DNA from: Bacteriovoracaceae bacterium
GTDB taxonomy: Bacteria; Bdellovibrionota; Bacteriovoracia; Bacteriovoracales; Bacteriovoracaceae
Reading direction: 5' to 3'
Assembly: GCA_018649885.1 (NCBI GenBank)
Contig: JABIHA010000138.1
Span: forward strand, 1 to 64,000
Length of the DNA stretch: 64,000 bases
Shown: positions 51,136 through 63,292 of the stretch, one piece after another
Numbering within the stretch: position 1 is the first letter of the stretch
Layout of the letters: each line of letters begins with the position of its first letter
Notes under the pieces: model-generated
Seen by the model: only the letters and a program-made list of their open reading frames with translations
Database searches by the model: none
Told to the model about the DNA's origin: nothing
Position numbers and translations under genes: made by a program

Positions 51136-52572
51136 GTGGAAAAGATATTAAACTACATTAATGGTGAGCTCGTTAGTCCAAAAAATGGGAATTGGATTGA
51201 GGGAATGAATCCGGCCACACTGGAAGTGACTTCACAAATCTGTGACTCTGAAGCCGCTGATGTGGAGGCTGCCATAAGAAGTGCTGAGTCCGCCTTCACA
51301 TTTTGGGGGCAGTCTTCAGTTTCCTACAGAGTCCAGGTTGTTAGAAAAATTGCCGATCTCATTGAAGAAAATATAGAAGAGCTCAGTAAAATTGAAAGCA
51401 TGGATAATGGAAAGCCTATTTCCGCCTCTAAAAGTGTCGACATTCCTAGGAGTGCTACTAACTTTCGCTATTTTTGCGATGCTATGACTCAGTTTTCAAG
51501 TGAGTGTCATCAAACAGATCCCGGGCTTATCAATTTCACTACAAGATCACCTCTGGGGGTTGTCGGTTGTATCTCCCCGTGGAACCTTCCTCTTTATCTT
51601 TTTACTTGGAAAATTGCACCCGCCCTACTGGCCGGCAATACCATTGTGGCCAAGCCCTCAGAGGTGACACCCATGAGTGCTTTTTTTCTTTCAAAGCTTT
51701 GTATTCGTGCGGGTCTTCCCGGAGGAGTGTTAAATATTGTTCACGGTCACGGTCATAAAATCGGGGAGACACTTAATACTGACCCGGTTGTTAAGGCTAT
51801 TTCTTTTACCGGAAGTACACAGACTGGAAGAATGATCGCCACTGCAGCTGCCGGAAGTTTCAAAAAAGTTGGCCTGGAGATGGGAGGAAAGAATCCTACC
51901 ATCGTTTTTGCTGATGCTGACCTTGAGCTTGCTACTTCGGGAGCAAAGAGGGCGGCATTTTCTAATCAGGGACAAATTTGTTTATGTGGTTCAAGAATTT
52001 TGGTGGAAAAGAGTATCTACTCTGATTTTTGCCATCGGCTTATTCAAAAGACTCGTGAAATTACCATTGGTGATCCCCTCGATCCTAAAACCCAGCATGG
52101 GGCGATGGTTAGTGGTGAGCATTTTAATAAAGTGATGAAAAGTATTGAACTGGCAGTGCAAGAGGGCGGAAAAATTCTTTGTGGCGGTAATAGCGTAAAA
52201 CCGGAAGGTCTCGCTGGATATTTTATAGAGCCTACATTGATAGAAGGTCTTGGCAGTGAGTGCAGAACAAATCAGGAAGAGATTTTTGGTCCAGTGGCGA
52301 CAATTATTCCTTTTGAAGGTGAAGAGCAGGCACTGGAAATTGCTAACTCCACCGAGTATGGCCTGGCGGCTTCTGTCTGGACTAAGGATATTAGTTTGGC
52401 CCACAGAATGTCAGAAAAACTTGAGGCCGGAATGGTTTGGGTAAATTGCTGGATGGAAAGAGATCTTCGAACTCCTTTTGGCGGAGTGAAAAATTCGGGC
52501 TTTGGAAGAGAGGGAGGGCTTGAGTCTCTTCGCTTTTTCACCAAACCCAAAAATATATGTATTAGTTATTAG
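51136..52572 (+). CDS. 2-aminomuconate/hydroxymuconate semialdehyde dehydrogenase
   Basis: 478 residues, an NAD-dependent aldehyde dehydrogenase. ISPWNLPLYLFTWKIAPALL, LEMGGKNPTIVF and SNQGQICLCGSR (catalytic Cys) are the standard motifs, and the motif FGREGG near the end closes the fold. In this operon it should oxidise 2-aminomuconate 6-semialdehyde, the product of ACMSD, to 2-aminomuconate (AmnC/NbaE role). It starts with GTG directly after kynB. Substrate assignment is from the operon; the family itself is broader. Confidence 0.92.
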   Translation: MEKILNYINGELVSPKNGNWIEGMNPATLEVTSQICDSEAADVEAAIRSAESAFTFWGQSSVSYRVQVVRKIADLIEENIEELSKIESMDNGKPISASKSVDIPRSATNFRYFCDAMTQFSSECHQTDPGLINFTTRSPLGVVGCISPWNLPLYLFTWKIAPALLAGNTIVAKPSEVTPMSAFFLSKLCIRAGLPGGVLNIVHGHGHKIGETLNTDPVVKAISFTGSTQTGRMIATAAAGSFKKVGLEMGGKNPTIVFADADLELATSGAKRAAFSNQGQICLCGSRILVEKSIYSDFCHRLIQKTREITIGDPLDPKTQHGAMVSGEHFNKVMKSIELAVQEGGKILCGGNSVKPEGLAGYFIEPTLIEGLGSECRTNQEEIFGPVATIIPFEGEEQALEIANSTEYGLAASVWTKDISLAHRMSEKLEAGMVWVNCWMERDLRTPFGGVKNSGFGREGGLESLRFFTKPKNICISY

Positions 52573-52581
52573 GATAGAAAA

Positions 52582-52992
52582 ATGGAAGAAAAAAATTCAA
52601 ATAGAGCTCCCGATCCCGTAGGCCTTTATCCCCACGCAAAAAAGGTGGGGAATTTATTATTTCTATCTGGTGTGGGCCCAAGAAAAAAAGGAACTGATCA
52701 AATCCCAGGGGTTGTGCTGGGTGAAAATGGAGAAGTAGTTGAAAGTGATATTGAAGCGCAATGTCGAAGTGTTTTTGATAATGTTAGGGCGATCTTAGAA
52801 GACTCGGGCTCTAGCTGGGATCAATTAGTAGATGTAACCGTTTTTCTTACCAATATGAAAAAAGACTTTAAAACCTATAATAAAATTTATGCTCAGTATT
52901 TCTCAGAAAATAGGCCTTGTCGAACGACAGTAGAGATTAACTGTCTTCCCACCCCTATTGCTATTGAATTAAAGTGCATAGCCACAATTTAA
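52582..52992 (+). CDS. RidA-family protein, probable 2-aminomuconate deaminase
   Basis: 136 residues, RidA/YjgF fold. YPHAKKVGNLLFLSGVGPRK and DVTVFLTNMKKDFKTYNKIY are characteristic, and the C-terminal NRPCRTTVEINCLPTPIAIE holds the Arg that contacts the substrate in this family. Several bacterial kynurenine and aminophenol operons use RidA-type 2-aminomuconate deaminases (AmnD/NbaF), releasing ammonia to give 4-oxalocrotonate. Its place between the dehydrogenase and 3-HAO supports that role rather than general imine deamination. Confidence 0.88.
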   Translation: MEEKNSNRAPDPVGLYPHAKKVGNLLFLSGVGPRKKGTDQIPGVVLGENGEVVESDIEAQCRSVFDNVRAILEDSGSSWDQLVDVTVFLTNMKKDFKTYNKIYAQYFSENRPCRTTVEINCLPTPIAIELKCIATI

Positions 52993-53008
52993 GATTCAGG
53001 AGACCATC

Positions 53009-53524
53009 ATGAGTACTTGTATTCCCATTAATTTTAAAAACTGGATTAACGATCACCGGGAATTTCTAAAACCCCCTGTTGGGAACAAGATGGTTTGGAA
53101 AGAAGGTGGGTTTATTGTGATGGTAGTTGGTGGGCCCAATGCTCGTCAGGATTACCATATAAATGAAACCGATGAGTTCTTCTACCAAGTAGAAGGAAAT
53201 ATGGTTTTAAAAACAAGAAATGATCACGGTAAGATAGTAGATGTACCTATTAATGAAGGTGAGATCTACCTTCTGTCTGGAGGGGTTCCGCACAGCCCAC
53301 AAAGAGAGGCCAATTCAGTTGGACTTGTTATTGAAAAAACGAGGGTCCCTGAAGACAAAGATTCTCTTGTTTGGTATTGCGAGGGATGCGACAGTGTCCT
53401 CTACAGCGAGACTTTTTATCTATCAAATATTGAAACCCAACTGAAAGAATGTTTTGATCGCTACTTTGGTGATGAAAAAAATTATACCTGCAAAAAATGT
53501 GGGCGGGTAAACCCAAAGGCTTAG
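53009..53524 (+). CDS. nbaC: 3-hydroxyanthranilate 3,4-dioxygenase
   Basis: 171 residues, a cupin. The iron ligands are His50, Glu56 and His95 (DYHINETDEFF and GGVPHSPQR). The bacterial form has a C-terminal rubredoxin-like metal site, present here as CEGC (124-127) and CKKC (161-164). It opens the ring of 3-hydroxyanthranilate to give ACMS. It is encoded between the RidA protein and ACMSD and ends just before the latter's start. Length agrees with bacterial homologues. Confidence 0.95.
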   Translation: MSTCIPINFKNWINDHREFLKPPVGNKMVWKEGGFIVMVVGGPNARQDYHINETDEFFYQVEGNMVLKTRNDHGKIVDVPINEGEIYLLSGGVPHSPQREANSVGLVIEKTRVPEDKDSLVWYCEGCDSVLYSETFYLSNIETQLKECFDRYFGDEKNYTCKKCGRVNPKA

Positions 53525-53526
53525 TA

Positions 53527-54558
53527 GTGTTAAAAATTGATATTCATACCCATATTCTTCCTCCTGTAATCCCTGAGTTTAAAAAACAATTCGGATACGG
53601 AGGATTTATCTGTCTTGAGCACGCGAGCGCTGAATGTAACTGCACTGCCAATATGGTGGGAGATGATGGGCGGTTTTTCCGTAGTGTTGAGCCCAATTGT
53701 TTTGATCCCAAGGCCAGAATTATAGACTGTGATGAACATGATGTGGGTGTGCAAGTGCTTTCAACAGTACCAGTGATGTTTAGTTACTGGACTAAACCAG
53801 ATGATGGACTATTTGTTGCAAAATTTCTCAATGATCATATCGCTAGTGTTTGTCAGAAATTTCCAAAAAGATTTGTGGGGCTGGGAACACTTCCTATGCA
53901 ATCACCAAAGCTAGCTGTTAAAGAGCTAGAGCGCCTTGTGAAAGAATTGGGGTTGTGTGGAGTAGAAATTGGCTCTCATATTGGGGAGTTAAATTTAAAT
54001 GATCCTGCACTTTTTGAAGTTTTTGAAGCGGCTGCTGAATTGGGCGCGGCCGTACTCGTTCATCCCTGGGATATGATGGGAAAAGAGCGTATGGAGAAGT
54101 ACTGGCTTCCATGGCTTGTGGGAATGCCGGCTGAAAGTTCACTGGCGATTTGTTCCATGATTTTTGGTGGTGTCTTTGAACGCCTCCCCAAACTCAAGGT
54201 AGCCTTCGCCCACGGAGGAGGCTCCTTTCCGTCTACAATTGGAAGAATTGAGCATGGTTTTAATGTCAGACCGGATCTTTGTGCCATCGACAATGATAAA
54301 TCACCTCTTGATTACCTAGGGCGTTTTTGGGTTGATTCATTAGTTCACAATAAGGCAATGCTCGCCCAACTGATAGAGCTCTTTGGATCTAATCGTGTGG
54401 CCCTTGGCACAGATTATCCTTTTCCCCTAGGAGAGCTAGAACCTGGACAATTAATAGGGTCAATGAATTTAGATCAAGAAACTAGGAACAACCTATATCA
54501 CGCCAGTGCCCTAGAGTGGCTTGGCCTTGAAAAAGAAAGATTCACCACGGAGAATTAA
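53527..54558 (+). CDS. nbaD: ACMS decarboxylase (amidohydrolase family)
   Basis: 343 residues, a metal-dependent TIM barrel. IDIHTHILPP provides the HxH zinc ligands, and VLVHPWDMMG and ALGTDYPFPLGE further ligands, all typical of ACMSD. It converts 2-amino-3-carboxymuconate semialdehyde to 2-aminomuconate semialdehyde and so prevents spontaneous quinolinate formation. I use the GTG at 53527 with AAAGG upstream, two bases after the 3-HAO stop; an ATG at 53497 overlaps 3-HAO and lacks a site. Confidence 0.94.
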   Translation: MLKIDIHTHILPPVIPEFKKQFGYGGFICLEHASAECNCTANMVGDDGRFFRSVEPNCFDPKARIIDCDEHDVGVQVLSTVPVMFSYWTKPDDGLFVAKFLNDHIASVCQKFPKRFVGLGTLPMQSPKLAVKELERLVKELGLCGVEIGSHIGELNLNDPALFEVFEAAAELGAAVLVHPWDMMGKERMEKYWLPWLVGMPAESSLAICSMIFGGVFERLPKLKVAFAHGGGSFPSTIGRIEHGFNVRPDLCAIDNDKSPLDYLGRFWVDSLVHNKAMLAQLIELFGSNRVALGTDYPFPLGELEPGQLIGSMNLDQETRNNLYHASALEWLGLEKERFTTEN

Positions 54559-54560
54559 AG

Positions 54561-55643
54561 ATGCAAAAAAATCCTAACCCTTGCTATTACCCTGATTACT
54601 TAAAATTAAATATGGTCTTAGGCAGCCAAGAGCCCTTAAGTGGTAAATACGGCGAAGAGGCCCATGATGAAACTCTTTTTATCATTGTTCATCAAGTATA
54701 TGAGTTATGGTTCAAACAAATTTTGCACGAAATGGGTGTTGTGCTCAATGTTTTTGGGCAAGATTACATTAGTGAGTCAGATCTAGGAAGTTGTCTTTCA
54801 AAAACCTACCGAGTTAAGTCGATTCAAAAAGTACTTATTGATCAGCTCAATATTATCGAGACCATGACTCCTCAAGCCTTTTTAGATTTTAGAGACTACC
54901 TTGTCCCCGCTTCTGGTTTTCAAAGCGTTCAGTTTAGAGAACTTGAAATTAGGCTTGGACTCAAAACTGACAACCGGGTCGCTTACGACAATAAATCCTT
55001 TCACAATCGCCTGTCAGCTGAACACCAAGAATACCTTATCAATGTGGAGAAACAGCCCGCCCTAATTGATCTTTTGGCGAATTGGCTTGAAAGGCTTCCT
55101 TTTGTCGATTTTGGAGGATTCAAATTTTGGGAACAATATCAAACTGCCGTTTGGAAAATGTTAGATAGTGATAGTGAAATCATTAAAAATAACCCCACAC
55201 TAAATCATGAAGAAATAAAACTCCAATTAAAAGAGCTTGATTTAACAAGGGCGAGCTTTGAATCTCTGTTTGATGATGAAAAATACAACGAGCGTTTTCC
55301 AAATCACGTACTCTCAAGAAAAGCGATGCTTTCAGCACTGTTTATTAAGCTCTATAGTTGGTATCCACTACTGGATATTCCTGCAAGATTTTTAACATCA
55401 CTGATGGATATTGATGAATTACTTGCCAATTGGAGGCACAATCACGCTCTGATGGTTCAAAGAATGATTGGGACCAAAATTGGTACTGGCGGTTCTGCAG
55501 GACACACATACCTTAAGGCCACAACACATTCCAATCGAGTTTTTACAGATTTATTTAATATATCGACTTTCTTAGTGCCCACATCTGCACTACCTAAGTT
55601 ACCTGAAGAGGTAATAAAAAACCTTCAGTTTCAAAGAATGTGA
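54561..55643 (+). CDS. kynA: Tryptophan 2,3-dioxygenase
   Basis: 360 residues. HDETLFIIVHQVYELWFKQI is the hallmark motif near residue 36, and GTGGSAGHTYLKATT near the C-terminus also fits; the haem-ligand His probably lies in NHALMVQRMIG. It oxidises L-tryptophan to N-formylkynurenine, the first step. Unusually, this entry enzyme is the last gene of the operon, 2 bp after the ACMSD stop. The C-terminus overlaps the convergent small gene by 13 bp. Confidence 0.95.
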   Translation: MQKNPNPCYYPDYLKLNMVLGSQEPLSGKYGEEAHDETLFIIVHQVYELWFKQILHEMGVVLNVFGQDYISESDLGSCLSKTYRVKSIQKVLIDQLNIIETMTPQAFLDFRDYLVPASGFQSVQFRELEIRLGLKTDNRVAYDNKSFHNRLSAEHQEYLINVEKQPALIDLLANWLERLPFVDFGGFKFWEQYQTAVWKMLDSDSEIIKNNPTLNHEEIKLQLKELDLTRASFESLFDDEKYNERFPNHVLSRKAMLSALFIKLYSWYPLLDIPARFLTSLMDIDELLANWRHNHALMVQRMIGTKIGTGGSAGHTYLKATTHSNRVFTDLFNISTFLVPTSALPKLPEEVIKNLQFQRM

Positions 55644-57566: not shown

Positions 57567-57656
57567 CGAAGACCTTTTCATTCTGATCTATTTTATCGCT
57601 AGAAATATTACATCCAAAGTAGTAAAAATTCGGGCACATATAATTTTAAGGTGTTC

Positions 57657-58523
57657 ATGGTTTTTAAAGATTTACTCCAACTGACTAAGCCAAAATTGAG
57701 TGGGCTTGTGATTTTTACCTCTGCCGCTGGAATGCTACTAGCGCCTGGCGAGATCTCTTTTGCGCAGGGGGCTTGGGCCACACTTCTCATTACTATGGTT
57801 GTGGCATCTGGTGCTGTCCTCAATTCTTTTCTTGAGTGGAAGCTCGATAAGAAAATGGCCAGAACTAAAAGCAGACCTTTGCCTGCTGGAAGAATGAGCC
57901 CGGAGCTTGCGCTGTGGTTTGGTGTCCTGCTAAGTGTGATCTCTCTGCCACTGCTTGTTTTTACCGTTAATACCTTAACTGCATTTTTGGGCTTTATAGC
58001 GTGGTCTACTTATTTATTTGCCTATACACCTATGAAAAAACGAACACCACTTGCAGTTGCTGTAGGGGCCATTCCTGGAGCCCTTCCACCACTAATGGGG
58101 TGGGCCGCTTGCGCTGGAGGCCTTGACGCCATGGCCTGGTCACTTTTTATCATTTTGTGTGTTTGGCAAATTCCACATTTTCTTGCCATCTCTATTGTTC
58201 ATAGACTTGATTATCACAATGCAGGGGTTATGGTTTTGCCAAACCTAGAGGGAATTGATGTGACGGCCAAGTGTATCTTTGCCACAACACTACTTCTTTA
58301 CGCTGTTAGTTTTCTGCCAGGCTTTGTATCTACAACATTTGCTGGATATTCGGTGGCCGCCCTTCTCCTGGGAGCAGTACTTGCCTTTTTCTCCTGGAAA
58401 ACCTGTGCTCATTCTTCTCAAACTTCCCAGAGTTTTAAATGGTCCAAGGCCTACTTCTGGTCAACCATTGCTTACTTGCCGCTACTGTTCATTTGCATGA
58501 TTGCATTTAAATTCTCCAACTAA
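57657..58523 (+). CDS. ctaB: Protoheme IX farnesyltransferase
   Basis: 288 residues, about nine TM helices of the UbiA family. LLQLTKPKLSGLVIFTSAAG, NSFLEWKLDKKMARTKSRPL (the NxxxDxxxD-type prenyl-binding region, here with Glu/Asp variation) and GVMVLPNLEG are typical. It attaches farnesyl to haem b to make haem O for the adjacent oxidase. ATG 57657 has TAAGG five bases upstream; a GTG at 57651 is possible. It belongs to the oxidase operon. Confidence 0.93.
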   Translation: MVFKDLLQLTKPKLSGLVIFTSAAGMLLAPGEISFAQGAWATLLITMVVASGAVLNSFLEWKLDKKMARTKSRPLPAGRMSPELALWFGVLLSVISLPLLVFTVNTLTAFLGFIAWSTYLFAYTPMKKRTPLAVAVGAIPGALPPLMGWAACAGGLDAMAWSLFIILCVWQIPHFLAISIVHRLDYHNAGVMVLPNLEGIDVTAKCIFATTLLLYAVSFLPGFVSTTFAGYSVAALLLGAVLAFFSWKTCAHSSQTSQSFKWSKAYFWSTIAYLPLLFICMIAFKFSN

Positions 58524-58607: not shown

Positions 58608-59429
58608 ATGGGTTTTAAATTATTGGTTTCGCTGCTCCATGTAGGCCAAGTCAGTGCTGGAATGTTTTCAGATTTCATTACGATGCTGACCCCTCCTGAA
58701 GATATTTCTACTTACGGTCACAAGATTATGTTTCTGTTTAACTACATCACTGTGATGAATGTGTTTTATTTCACGCTCGTGTGTATTGGCCTTTTTGGTT
58801 TCTCTTATTTGTATAGTGCCAAGAGAAACAAGACTCCTGAGTACACTTATGGAAATAGAAAAAAACAGCTTAAGGTTACCCTGATAATAGGTCTGGCCGT
58901 TTTTTGTACAGTGGATAGTGTTATTACAGTGACGGCCAACAATGATTTGGTAAATACTTTTTGGAAGTTTCCTGAAAGTGATGATCCTGAAACTATCAAG
59001 GTTCAAGTTTTGGCCCAACAGTGGATGTGGCACTTTAGGCTTGCCGGTAATGATAAGGTTTTTAATACAGATGATGACATCGTGACCGCCAATCATCTTC
59101 ATCTTCCAATAGGAAAAAAAATTGTTTTTCAACTAACTTCTAAAGATGTCATTCACTCCTTTTTCCTACCTAATGCTAGGGTAAAGATTGATGCAATGCC
59201 TGGAAGAATTTCAAGGATCTGGGTCGAGTTTACAAAGTCTGGTGATTTCGAGATCGCTTGCGCTGAAATGTGCGGGACCCATCACTATCTAATGAAAGCA
59301 AAAATGACTTTATACGATCCAGATGATTTTCAGTATTGGGAAAGTGAAGCAGCTAAGTTTGCTTACCAAGAAAACGATACAGGGACTGTTGATTCCTACT
59401 GGGGATGGAAGTGGGAGAGCAATAGATGA
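58608..59429 (+). CDS. coxB: Cytochrome c oxidase subunit II
   Basis: 273 residues. Two TM helices (about 40-70 and 90-110) anchor a CuA cupredoxin domain. The CuA ligands are His183 (DVIHSFFLP), Cys218, Glu220, Cys222, His226 and Met229 (CAEMCGTHHYLM), all present. WMWHF at 139-143 is the aromatic docking patch. There is no fused cytochrome c domain; a separate dihaem cytochrome is encoded downstream instead. It overlaps coxA by 4 bp (ATGA). Confidence 0.95.
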   Translation: MGFKLLVSLLHVGQVSAGMFSDFITMLTPPEDISTYGHKIMFLFNYITVMNVFYFTLVCIGLFGFSYLYSAKRNKTPEYTYGNRKKQLKVTLIIGLAVFCTVDSVITVTANNDLVNTFWKFPESDDPETIKVQVLAQQWMWHFRLAGNDKVFNTDDDIVTANHLHLPIGKKIVFQLTSKDVIHSFFLPNARVKIDAMPGRISRIWVEFTKSGDFEIACAEMCGTHHYLMKAKMTLYDPDDFQYWESEAAKFAYQENDTGTVDSYWGWKWESNR

Positions 59430-61153
59430 AAGTCTTAGTACATGCACACGATGCACCTAATACATTTTTAAGTAAGTATATAATCTCATATGACCATAAA
59501 GTGATTGCTAAGCAATTTTTATGGTTGGGCATGGTATTTCTCGCTATAGGCGGATTGATGGCCATGTTGATAAGGTGGACTTTGGCAAATCCAGGTGTTC
59601 CGATGCCTTTTTTTGGCCATCTTCTCTTCCCAAATAGTGGCGGAGTTGTTCCCCCCGATTCATATGCCATGCTCTTTACTGAACATGGAACAATTATGAT
59701 TTTTTGGGCCATCACTCCCATACTTATTGGGGCCTTTGGCAATCTTTTGATTCCCCTTCAAATTGGTGCCAGGGATATGATTTTTCCCACGCTCAATATG
59801 CTCTCTTTTCATTTTACCTTTGTTTCAGGTGTCATTATGCTATTAGCACTTTGTACACCTCTTGGTGGTGCTGCTGGTGGATGGACTGCCTACCCCACTC
59901 TTTCGTTGAATTTGGGTAGCCCTGGAGCGGGACAAACCTTGTGGGCCATCGCTATTTTTCTTTTTGGTATTTCTTCAACTATGGGGGCCATCAATTATAT
60001 CACGACAGTGATATGCCTTAGGGCCCCAGGCATGGGTTATTTTGATATGCCTCTTGCTGTATGGGGACTTCTTTTAACAGCGATTTTAAATGCTATCTTT
60101 GTTCCAGTTCTTGGAGCAGGTGGGCTACTGCTTGTTTTTGATAGGGTATTTGAAACCCAATATTTCTTGGCGGGAGCTGCTGCTACTTCTGGAACAGGGG
60201 ATCCTATTTTATTCCAACACGTATTTTGGATCTTTGGTCACCCCGAAGTGTACATCCTTATACTGCCGGCTTGGGGAATTGTTTCAGATCTTTTGTCTTT
60301 CTTTTCAAGAAAACCAGCATTTGGATATAAGGCCACTGCACTTTCAATGTGTGCTATTACCGTTTTGTCTACACTCGTTTACGGTCACCACATGTTTACG
60401 ACTCAGATGTCACCACTTCTTACTCAAAGTTTTATGACTCTTACAATGACGATCTCAATTCCATCGGCCATCTTTTTCGCCAATTGGCTTGGGACTTTAT
60501 ACAAAGGATCGATCCGCTTCACTTCTCCCATGCTTTTTTCATTGGGAGTTGTTTTTGTTTTCGGTCTAGGTGGTTTAACAGGTCTTTATCTTGGAACTAC
60601 TACCACAGACTTCTATCTTCACGACACTTACTTTGTTGTGGGTCACTTTCATTACACCATGGCAGCTTCTGTATTTTTAGCTGGCTTTGGAGCAATCTAT
60701 TTTTGGTGGCCAAAAATGTACGGTACGATGCTTAATGAGAGGCTTGCTAAAGCTCATTTTTGGGCAACCATACTTCCTCTCAACGGTGTGTTTATGGGGA
60801 TGATGATGATGGGCTATGCGGGGATGCATAGAAGACTTTACAATCCCTTCATCTATGACTTTCTTAAAAAACTAATACCAATGAATAATTTTGTTACAAC
60901 TTGTGCGATCCTAATGGGTTTTGCACAGATTTTCTTTATCACCAATCTTATTTGGACTTATTTTAAAGGTGAGCAGGCTTCTGATAATCCGTGGGAAGTG
61001 GGAACACTTGAATGGACTACACCTTCTCCGGTTCCACACTATAACTTTAAATCTATCCCAATTGTTAAGTGTGGACCCCACGAACTTGGGAATCCTAAAT
61101 TGACTACGGGAAGAGACTTTCAATATCAGACAGAGGAATTGGTAGAAGTTTAA
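59426..61153 (+). CDS. coxA: Cytochrome c oxidase subunit I, K-channel Lys replaced
   Basis: 575 residues with 12 or more TM helices. Ligands are complete: His87 and His409 for the low-spin haem, His407 for the haem a3, and His272, His321 and His322 for CuB, with the crosslinking Tyr276 in GHPEVY. Glu274 (HPEV) and Asp117 (GARDMIF) for the D-channel are present. At the K-channel Lys position, where P-T-G-I-K is usual, the sequence is PSAIFFANW, with Phe350. It thus resembles A-family oxidases but lacks the usual K-channel residue. Coupled to coxB and coxC by overlaps. Confidence 0.94.
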   Translation: MKVLVHAHDAPNTFLSKYIISYDHKVIAKQFLWLGMVFLAIGGLMAMLIRWTLANPGVPMPFFGHLLFPNSGGVVPPDSYAMLFTEHGTIMIFWAITPILIGAFGNLLIPLQIGARDMIFPTLNMLSFHFTFVSGVIMLLALCTPLGGAAGGWTAYPTLSLNLGSPGAGQTLWAIAIFLFGISSTMGAINYITTVICLRAPGMGYFDMPLAVWGLLLTAILNAIFVPVLGAGGLLLVFDRVFETQYFLAGAAATSGTGDPILFQHVFWIFGHPEVYILILPAWGIVSDLLSFFSRKPAFGYKATALSMCAITVLSTLVYGHHMFTTQMSPLLTQSFMTLTMTISIPSAIFFANWLGTLYKGSIRFTSPMLFSLGVVFVFGLGGLTGLYLGTTTTDFYLHDTYFVVGHFHYTMAASVFLAGFGAIYFWWPKMYGTMLNERLAKAHFWATILPLNGVFMGMMMMGYAGMHRRLYNPFIYDFLKKLIPMNNFVTTCAILMGFAQIFFITNLIWTYFKGEQASDNPWEVGTLEWTTPSPVPHYNFKSIPIVKCGPHELGNPKLTTGRDFQYQTEELVEV

Positions 61154-61740
61154 TGGAAACAATTGATTTAACCATAGATCCAAAGAAAAGAAAGATAGCT
61201 GGTGAGGTCGCTTCAACTGTGGCCATGGTGTCTTTTGCTATGCTTTTTGGAACTCTGTTTATGGGCTACGCTGTTTTTAGGGCCCAACAAGTTGTTTGGC
61301 CCCCTATGGGTCTTAGTCTTCCTCCACTTTTTTATCCAACTCAGTCTACTATTGTGATTGGAATCAGTTCACTATTTTATGAGGGATTTCGTCATTTTGT
61401 AGAAAGGGACGATTTAGGGAAGGCAAAAATTTGTCTTGTGGCCACACTTGCATTTGGGCTGGCCTTTATTTTTTGTCAGGTGAAGTTGTGGGAAGTGTTA
61501 GAGCTCTCAGGAGTTTATCATTACTCTGGAATTTTTGGCTCTGTGGTTTTTGGTTATACATGGATTCATACTGCTCATGTTGTGCTGGGAATTAGCTCTC
61601 TATTGTATTTAGTTTTACCCACTTTTTTTGGGGTTTTAGGTTCTGCAAATTTAAAAAGCTCAGCAGGACATATAGGAAAGTTTTGGCACTTTTTAGGTAT
61701 AGTCTGGTTAATAGTTTATTTAATGATATTTTTATTTTAA
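61153..61740 (+). CDS. coxC: Cytochrome c oxidase subunit III
   Basis: 195 residues with five TM helices, the compact form of subunit III. GTLFMGYAVFRAQQVVWPP is the first helix end, STIVIGISSLFYEGFRHF the second, and GYTWIHTAHVVLGISSLLYL carries the conserved His. Its ATG overlaps the coxA stop by one base (TAATG). It stabilises subunit I and D-channel proton uptake. It is shorter than the seven-helix mitochondrial type, as in many bacterial caa3/quinol oxidases. Confidence 0.9.
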   Translation: METIDLTIDPKKRKIAGEVASTVAMVSFAMLFGTLFMGYAVFRAQQVVWPPMGLSLPPLFYPTQSTIVIGISSLFYEGFRHFVERDDLGKAKICLVATLAFGLAFIFCQVKLWEVLELSGVYHYSGIFGSVVFGYTWIHTAHVVLGISSLLYLVLPTFFGVLGSANLKSSAGHIGKFWHFLGIVWLIVYLMIFLF

Positions 61741-62644: not shown

Positions 62645-63292
62645 ATGGAATTAAGTGCAGGAAAAATTCGCCAAGATAATAAATTGCAAAAAGTTTTGGC
62701 CAGTAAGTGGTTTTGGGTTCTCTCAATTTGCTTTTTATTTTCCTATCCTCTTATAAGGGCGGTTAATAGAGAGCTTCCTCCACCCAGACCAACCCTATAT
62801 CAAGTTCCAGAGTTTACACTTAAAAATGAGATGAATAAGCCTTTTGGTTCAAAAGATCTTAAAGGCAAGGTATACGTGGCCAGTTTTTTCTTCACAAGTT
62901 GTTCTGCCACTTGTCCAAAACTTATGGCCAAGATGCAAAAAATCCAAAAAAGAGTTAGAGGTTTAAGACAAACCATTGCTCTTGTTTCTTTTACTGTTGA
63001 TCCAGAAGAAGATTCACCAGAAAAACTTTTTAAGTTTTCAAGAAAGTACAAGGCCAATCCCTATATTTGGCGTTTTTTAACTGGTGAACGAGAAGTTTTA
63101 ACGAAGCTTTTGGTAAAAGGTTTTAAGGTTCCCATGAGCGGAGTAAAAGATCCTGACATTGTTGATTTGGCCCACACTGAAAAGTTTGTCCTTGTTGATA
63201 AAGTTGGCGGGATAAAGGGTTATTATGGAACTGATCAAAGCGGTATTGATAGAATGATGATTGATATTGGGTTACTTGCTAATGGAATTTAA
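62645..63292 (+). CDS. SCO1/SenC copper chaperone
   Basis: 215 residues. An N-terminal TM anchor (about 21-37) is followed by a thioredoxin fold. CSATC (86-90) with His177 (DLAHTEKF) form the copper site, and FTVDPEEDSPEKL is a family signature. It loads copper into the CuA centre of CoxB. It begins 3 bp after the cytochrome c gene stop. Length is usual for SCO proteins. Confidence 0.94.
   Translation: MELSAGKIRQDNKLQKVLASKWFWVLSICFLFSYPLIRAVNRELPPPRPTLYQVPEFTLKNEMNKPFGSKDLKGKVYVASFFFTSCSATCPKLMAKMQKIQKRVRGLRQTIALVSFTVDPEEDSPEKLFKFSRKYKANPYIWRFLTGEREVLTKLLVKGFKVPMSGVKDPDIVDLAHTEKFVLVDKVGGIKGYYGTDQSGIDRMMIDIGLLANGI

What the first reader, a model, noticed from the sequence alone, without database searches (positions are those of the whole stretch)
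60461..60487. Oxidase subunit I lacks the K-channel lysine
All haem and copper ligands, the crosslinked Tyr and D-channel Asp/Glu are present, but the near-invariant Lys in PTGIK is Phe350 (PSAIFF). A-family oxidases need this Lys for proton uptake in the reductive phase, so another route must exist or pumping is changed.
Basis: partly seen in the sequence, partly recalled or inferred. Interest (0 to 1): 0.7.

Follow-up and report, generated by a model that had tools for sequence, protein, structure and literature searches.

The report
Respiratory oxidase with rewired proton channel
A predatory-bacterium relative carries an otherwise normal cytochrome c oxidase that lacks the lysine thought essential for one of its two proton channels; many relatives in several phyla lack it too, and nearly all have gained a nearby serine or threonine instead, so nature seems to have solved this step without the lysine at least twice.

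Summary
Subunit I (59426-61153, 575 aa) has every metal ligand, the cross-link Tyr276, D-channel Asp117 and Glu274, but Phe350 (TTT, 60473-60475) where A-family oxidases have Lys (R. sphaeroides K362). It is not a one-off. The window is from Bacteriovoracaceae, where at least 75 genomes carry this oxidase; the same lineage occurs in Myxococcota, Acidobacteriota, Planctomycetota, Neomarinimicrobiota and Omnitrophota. This genome's second A-family oxidase (Val) also lacks Lys, and no cbb3 or bd oxidase was found. New here: in 180 of 180 aligned sequences where Lys is replaced by a non-ionisable residue, the residue six earlier in helix VIII (Ser344; A356 in R. sphaeroides) is Ser/Thr; with Lys present it is Ala/Gly in 113 of 116. 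It is the only column that gained polarity in all Lys-less groups. One common origin is rejected (AU p = 6e-5). The subunit II entry Glu (E101) is also replaced, here by Gln87. Best reading: a working A-family oxidase with a lysine-free, hydroxyl-based K-region; the proton route is inferred, not shown. One exception (Mesorhizobium, Ala/Ala) and separate Gln/Glu variants exist. K-channel loss is published for archaeal A-family oxidases; this hydroxyl swap was not found in the open-access library.

The parts
59426..61153 (+). cytochrome c oxidase subunit I (575 aa), A-family, K-channel Lys replaced
   Evidence: PF00115 E 1.1e-133; AF2 model pLDDT 87.4, pTM 0.90, Foldseek best hits A-family aa3 oxidases
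60473..60475 (+). Phe350 codon (TTT), place of K362 (R. sphaeroides)
   Evidence: ungapped alignment to PDB chains and 304 homologues
60455..60457 (+). Ser344 codon, place of A356 (R. sphaeroides); Ser/Thr in 180 of 180 non-ionisable Lys-less sequences of the main set
60464..60466 (+). Ser347 codon, place of K-channel T359 (kept hydroxyl)
60443..60445 (+). Thr340 codon, place of T352, conserved as Thr (or Ser) in all groups
60284..60286 (+). Ser287 codon, place of K-channel S299
60245..60253 (+). Glu274-Val-Tyr276 (GHPEVY): D-channel Glu and cross-linked Tyr
59774..59776 (+). Asp117 codon, D-channel entrance (D132)
58608..59429 (+). subunit II with CuA ligands (CAEMCGTHHYLM)
   Evidence: PF00116 E 2.2e-17
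58866..58868 (+). Gln87 of subunit II at the place of K-channel entry Glu (E101 II)
   Evidence: subunit II alignment
57651..58523 (+). ctaB, haem O synthase
   Evidence: TIGR01473 252.6 bits over cut-off
61153..61740 (+). subunit III
   Evidence: PF00510
61757..62641 (+). dihaem cytochrome c, likely electron donor; a two-CxxCH cytochrome c is present in each of the five related operons read
   Evidence: PF13442 and PF00034; operons
62645..63292 (+). SCO1/SenC copper assembly factor
   Evidence: PF02630
63342..63629 (+). subunit IV
   Evidence: PF03626

Best explanation
This is a working, haem-A-type A-family cytochrome c oxidase of a lysine-free variety. The two lysine-era marks of the K-channel are gone (Lys to Phe350 in subunit I; entry Glu to Gln87 in subunit II) and a hydroxyl has been added two turns higher in helix VIII (Ser344), next to the kept Thr340 and Ser347. 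I propose that these hydroxyls, with water, form a short proton relay at the tyrosine/haem a3 farnesyl end, so that Tyr276 is re-protonated in the reductive phase without a lysine, while Asp117-Glu274 carry the other protons and pumping. Shown: the residues, their co-change in at least two independent lineages, conservation, fold and operon. Inferred: that the enzyme is active, that Ser344 faces the Tyr/farnesyl (from helix geometry and recalled bovine A313 contacts), that it conducts or holds protons, and where those protons enter.
For: Of 304 subunit I sequences, every well-aligned one with a non-ionisable residue at 350 has Ser/Thr at 344 (180 of 180); with Lys, Ala/Gly in 113 of 116. Column 344 is the only one of 575 that gained polarity in all four Lys-less groups. 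One origin of Lys loss is rejected (p-AU 6.3e-5), so the swap happened at least twice (Ser in one lineage; mostly Thr, next to a Gly-bearing Lys type, in Terriglobia). Subunit II Glu is 49 of 49 with Lys but 2 of 111 in the window's clade, mostly His/Ser/Gln there. Ligands, Tyr and Glu conserved. Operon with CuA subunit, cytochrome c, SCO, subunit III; CtaA present; no bd and no other oxidase-type HCO found in this genome.
Against: No structure with haem and water was computed, so contacts of Ser344 are not shown. In the other Lys-less groups the lower K-channel hydroxyls (S299, T359 places) are often lost too, which fits closure of the channel as well as rerouting. One Mesorhizobium sequence has Ala at both places, and Lys coexists with Ser344 in four sequences, so the Ser is neither strictly required nor exclusive. 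The 180 sequences are related: the independent events number two, perhaps three.
Confidence: 0.5

Rival explanations
1. The K-channel is simply closed. All substrate and pumped protons enter by the D-channel (Asp117, Glu274); Ser344 only packs against or hydrogen-bonds the haem a3 farnesyl chain after Lys is lost.
For: Subunit II Glu and, in some groups, the S299 and T359 hydroxyls are also gone; D-channel Asp/Glu kept in the window. In K-channel mutants the first reduction step still occurs (PMC8079940).
Against: K362 mutants of the model enzyme are largely inactive (PMC8239185, PMC10095113), so D-only delivery needs further change; 19 Myxococcota members of the same clade lack the D132 Asp (Gly/Arg) and still have the Ser.
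Confidence: 0.3
2. Protons reach Tyr276 from the N side through a new lysine-free K-like channel with clade-specific polar residues (for example Thr304 on helix VII and His/Gln/Ser at the subunit II entry), as in B- and C-family oxidases that run a K-like channel without Lys.
For: Thr/Ser304 in 117 of 117 of the clade against Met in 68 of 69 Lys-bearing A1; the subunit II entry residue stays polar in nearly all 111; B and C families use hydroxyl/tyrosine K-channels (PMC3084760).
Against: Thr304 is not shared by the other Lys-less groups; no path was modelled.
Confidence: 0.15
3. The enzyme is not a real O2 reductase (decayed, or turned to another substrate such as NO).
For: Falls below the NCBIfam CtaD_CoxA cut-off (545 against 670.75 bits).
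Against: All ligands and the Tyr kept over many phyla, 75 or more genomes of the family carry it, complete operon; the genome has a separate qNOR-like protein.
Confidence: 0.05

Closest known systems
A1-type aa3 cytochrome c oxidase (R. sphaeroides, P. denitrificans, mycobacterial)
   Same: fold (TM about 0.84), metal ligands, Tyr, D-channel Asp/Glu, CuA subunit II
   Different: no K362, Ser instead of Ala at 356, no E101 in subunit II; about 36-39% identical
R. sphaeroides K362M mutant (PDB 3om3)
   Same: hydrophobic residue at the K362 place, same fold
   Different: a laboratory mutant with strongly impaired turnover; the window enzyme is natural, conserved and carries co-changes
Archaeal A-family oxidases with K-channel loss (Degli Esposti et al. 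2021, PMC8239418)
   Same: A-family COX1 without the canonical K-channel; the authors count seven losses under one of their hypotheses
   Different: archaeal; the residue-level variants are in a supplement not available here; no Ser/Thr swap is described in the main-text passages read
B- and C-family oxidases
   Same: run a K-like channel without Lys
   Different: lack the D-channel marks that the window enzyme has; only distant sequence similarity (ba3 about 47 bits)
CoxMNOP-like oxidases of Bradyrhizobium and Bacteroidota oxidases (L056, L107, L130)
   Same: Lys-bearing A1 relatives in the tree, similar gene order
   Different: keep PTAIK/PSAVK and the subunit II Glu

Membership tests
A-type (A1) haem-copper oxygen reductase | six His ligands and cross-linked Tyr in helix VI | tested here: met
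   invariant columns
A-type (A1) haem-copper oxygen reductase | D-channel Asp and Glu (P. denitrificans D124, E278) | tested here: met
   Asp117, Glu274
A-type (A1) haem-copper oxygen reductase | K-channel Lys354 (P. denitrificans; listed in PMC3084760 Table 2) | tested here: not met
   Phe350
A-type (A1) haem-copper oxygen reductase | K-channel Thr351 and Ser291 | tested here: met
   Ser347 (conservative) and Ser287
A-type (A1) haem-copper oxygen reductase | place among A-family sequences and fold | tested here: met
   nested among Lys-bearing A1 sequences; Foldseek
A-type (A1) haem-copper oxygen reductase | proton pumping of about 1 H+ per electron | not testable with these tools
   needs purified enzyme or cells
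NCBIfam TIGR02891 CtaD_CoxA | score over curated cut-off 670.75 | tested here: not met
   545 bits
B-type oxidase | no D-channel residues; B-type K-channel | tested here: not met
   Asp117 and Glu274 present; ba3 match only about 47 bits
nitric oxide reductase | loss of the helix VI Tyr of oxidases | tested here: not met
   GHPEVY with Tyr276 present

The most novel reading that the evidence does not exclude
A widespread lysine-free class of A-family oxidases in which the K-channel lysine has been exchanged, at least twice independently, for a Ser/Thr hydroxyl beside the catalytic tyrosine; some Myxococcota members also lack the D-channel Asp, so that neither classical entry residue is needed.
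Probability: 0.5. Interest if true: 0.75.

Novelty: new variant of a known kind. Interest (0 to 1): 0.62.

Why it matters
The K-channel lysine is treated as a fingerprint of A-family oxidases and as essential for the reductive phase. A conserved natural class without it, with a single recurrent partner change, gives a direct test of what the lysine does (proton wire, charge balance, or both) and offers natural enzymes in which to ask whether D-channel-only or hydroxyl-only delivery can support turnover and pumping. It also means that channel fingerprints misclassify a good number of bacterial oxidases.

Tried and rejected
Misalignment hiding a Lys: rejected, ungapped alignment. CoxMNOP type as a known Lys-less class: rejected, it keeps Lys. 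Haem O instead of haem A because ctaA is absent from the window: rejected, CtaA is on another contig. My first hand alignment put Lys89 of subunit II at E101 (so written in notebook entries 2 and 4); the computed alignment puts Gln87 there, and that is what this report uses. A relocated Lys302 in helix VII: rejected, Lys/Arg is there in most groups alike. Open-access paper searches for A-family oxidases lacking the K-channel gave only PMC8239418 as relevant. The AF2 model gave no coordinates to measure distances, so Ser344 contacts could not be computed. Subunit II of the AHPEVY group is ambiguous: a Glu lies near the place of E101 and may be kept.

Full report
OBSERVATION. Subunit I of a cox operon is encoded at 59426-61153 (575 aa). 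Helix VIII reads T340-M-T-I-S344-I-P-S347-A-I-F350-F-A-N353-W. Against solved chains the alignment is ungapped and Phe350 lies on the K-channel Lys. All His ligands, Tyr276, Asp117 and Arg469/470 are invariant in a 51-sequence alignment, and Glu274 is present. AlphaFold2 gives the usual fold (pLDDT 87.4, pTM 0.90), and Foldseek's best matches are A-family aa3 oxidases, the R. sphaeroides K362M structure 3om3 among them.

SURROUNDINGS. The operon is ctaB, subunit II, subunit I, subunit III, dihaem cytochrome c, SCO, subunit IV. In five related operons read, two from the family and three from bins of other phyla, a two-CxxCH cytochrome c lies beside the oxidase genes, with subunit III and often a SCO-like gene. 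Subunit II carries a complete CuA motif. CtaA is on another contig, so haem A can be made. The genome (5.4 Mb, 92% complete) has two A-family oxidases and a qNOR-like protein; no cbb3-type and no bd oxidase was found. The second A-family oxidase (contig C20) also lacks the Lys (Val, ISVPFAVVLF). If the assembly is representative, this cell respires O2 with Lys-less enzymes only; it is a draft, so that is not certain.

DISTRIBUTION. Named relatives place the window in Bacteriovoracaceae, Bdellovibrionota. In a phylum sample, 75 genomes of the window's family and 4 of another family carry the same type. Outside the phylum it occurs in genomes labelled Thermoanaerobaculia and other Acidobacteria, Planctomycetota, Omnitrophota, Neomarinimicrobiota and Myxococcales. 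Many are metagenome bins, but repeated finds in the class of the Myxococcales bin, including large 9-13 Mb genomes, and in the phylum of the Neomarinimicrobiota bin argue against contamination there. Three other Lys-less groups exist: an AHPEVY group (Bdellovibrionota, Neomarinimicrobiota, Myxococcota), the group of the C20 oxidase, and a Terriglobia group.

THE RECURRENT PARTNER CHANGE. In 304 subunit I sequences, position 350 is Lys in 116, Glu/Gln in 7, and something else in 181; one of the 181 (L348) is a badly aligned distant sequence without the HPEVY motif and is set aside. Of the other 180, all have Ser (157) or Thr (23) at 344. Of the 116 with Lys, 113 have Ala or Gly and 3 have Ser. 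A scan of all 575 positions for polarity gained in a Lys-less group but rare in Lys-bearing ones returns column 344 for each of the four groups, and no other column for all four. A small separate set from plasmids (17 sequences) gave 10 with Lys (9 Ala, 1 Ser), 6 with Gln (Ala, Val or Ser) and one exception with Ala at both places, a Mesorhizobium protein that also lacks the D-channel Glu (GHPWVYA). So the rule is strong but not absolute.

INDEPENDENCE. With columns 340-356 left out, the tree needs at least three changes at 350 and three at 344; a second, more diverse tree gives four and six, the extra ones at 344 including Lys-bearing rows with Ser. Holding all Lys-less rows as one clade is rejected (p-AU 6.3e-5), while two origins, Terriglobia and the rest, are not rejected (p 0.17). 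Thus at least two independent events, perhaps three. This is few for a formal test of correlation (the paired test cannot reach 0.05), and the large counts above must not be read as independent events.

SUBUNIT II AND OTHER CHANNEL RESIDUES. The K-channel entry Glu of subunit II is Glu in 49 of 49 Lys-bearing A1 enzymes but in 2 of 111 of the window's clade, where it is mostly His (57), Ser (25) or Gln (16, the window's Gln87 included). Ser287 (S299) is kept in 87 of 117 and a hydroxyl at 347 (T359) in 95 of 117 of the clade; both are largely lost in the C20 group, and S299 in the AHPEVY group. In Myxococcota members of the clade the D132 Asp is also gone (14 Gly, 5 Arg).

MECHANISM. What all Lys-less groups with non-ionisable residues share is not a lower channel but the hydroxyl at 344. 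On an ideal helix it lies next to Thr340 and Ser347; from memory, the equivalent bovine A313 contacts haem a3 near the farnesyl chain and Tyr244 (not verified here). I therefore propose a lysine-free hydroxyl/water relay at the tyrosine end (0.5). The chief rival is a closed K-channel with D-channel delivery only and a structural Ser (0.3); the Myxococcota members without D132 speak against it as a general answer. Literature: A-type enzymes take one or two protons by the K-channel, and the first reduction still occurs in mutants lacking the Lys (PMC8079940); mutations at the ends of the D- and K-channels cost activity (PMC8239185); the subunit II Glu is a critical K-channel residue (PMC10095113).

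KNOWN OR NEW. By tree, fold and ligands this is an A-family oxidase; by the published channel fingerprint (PMC3084760 Table 2) it fails on the Lys. Loss of the K-channel in archaeal A-family oxidases is discussed in PMC8239418. I found no description of this bacterial class or of the 344 swap, but only open-licence papers could be searched. Verdict: new variant of a known kind.

Noticed in passing
G000 contig C20 (L192:4181-5848): The genome's second A-family oxidase also lacks the K-channel Lys (Val; ISVPFAVVLF), with a subunit II lacking the entry Glu.
   Followed up: yes
L250-L264, L335-L338: Myxococcota members of the clade also lack the D-channel entrance Asp (Gly or Arg at the D132 place), and many have His/Ser at the N121/N139 places: neither classical entry residue is present.
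   Followed up: partly
L362-L366, L371; L053, L298, L333, L334; L326-L328: Further K-channel variants: Lys to Gln in plasmid-borne ctaD of Alphaproteobacteria and others, Lys to Glu in an Acidobacteriota group; these keep Ala/Val at 344 in all but one.
   Followed up: partly
L369 (Mesorhizobium sp. INR15 plasmid): CtaD with Ala at the K362 place, Ala at 344 and GHPWVYA, so the D-channel Glu and the Lys are both missing.
   Followed up: no
L064:3341-5053, L089:3212-5014, L374-L380: Many Bacteriovoracaceae have a ctaA-ctaB fusion upstream of the cox genes; the window has ctaB alone and a separate CtaA on contig C109.
   Followed up: partly
window 51136-55643: Tryptophan/kynurenine breakdown genes (aldehyde dehydrogenase, RidA-like, 3-hydroxyanthranilate dioxygenase, amidohydrolase, tryptophan 2,3-dioxygenase) lie next to the cox operon; a tryptophan 2,3-dioxygenase-like gene is also there in L089.
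   Followed up: partly
L224, L226-L228, L230 against L205-L223: Terriglobia genomes often carry two A-family paralogues, one with the Lys and one without, a natural pair for comparison.
   Followed up: no
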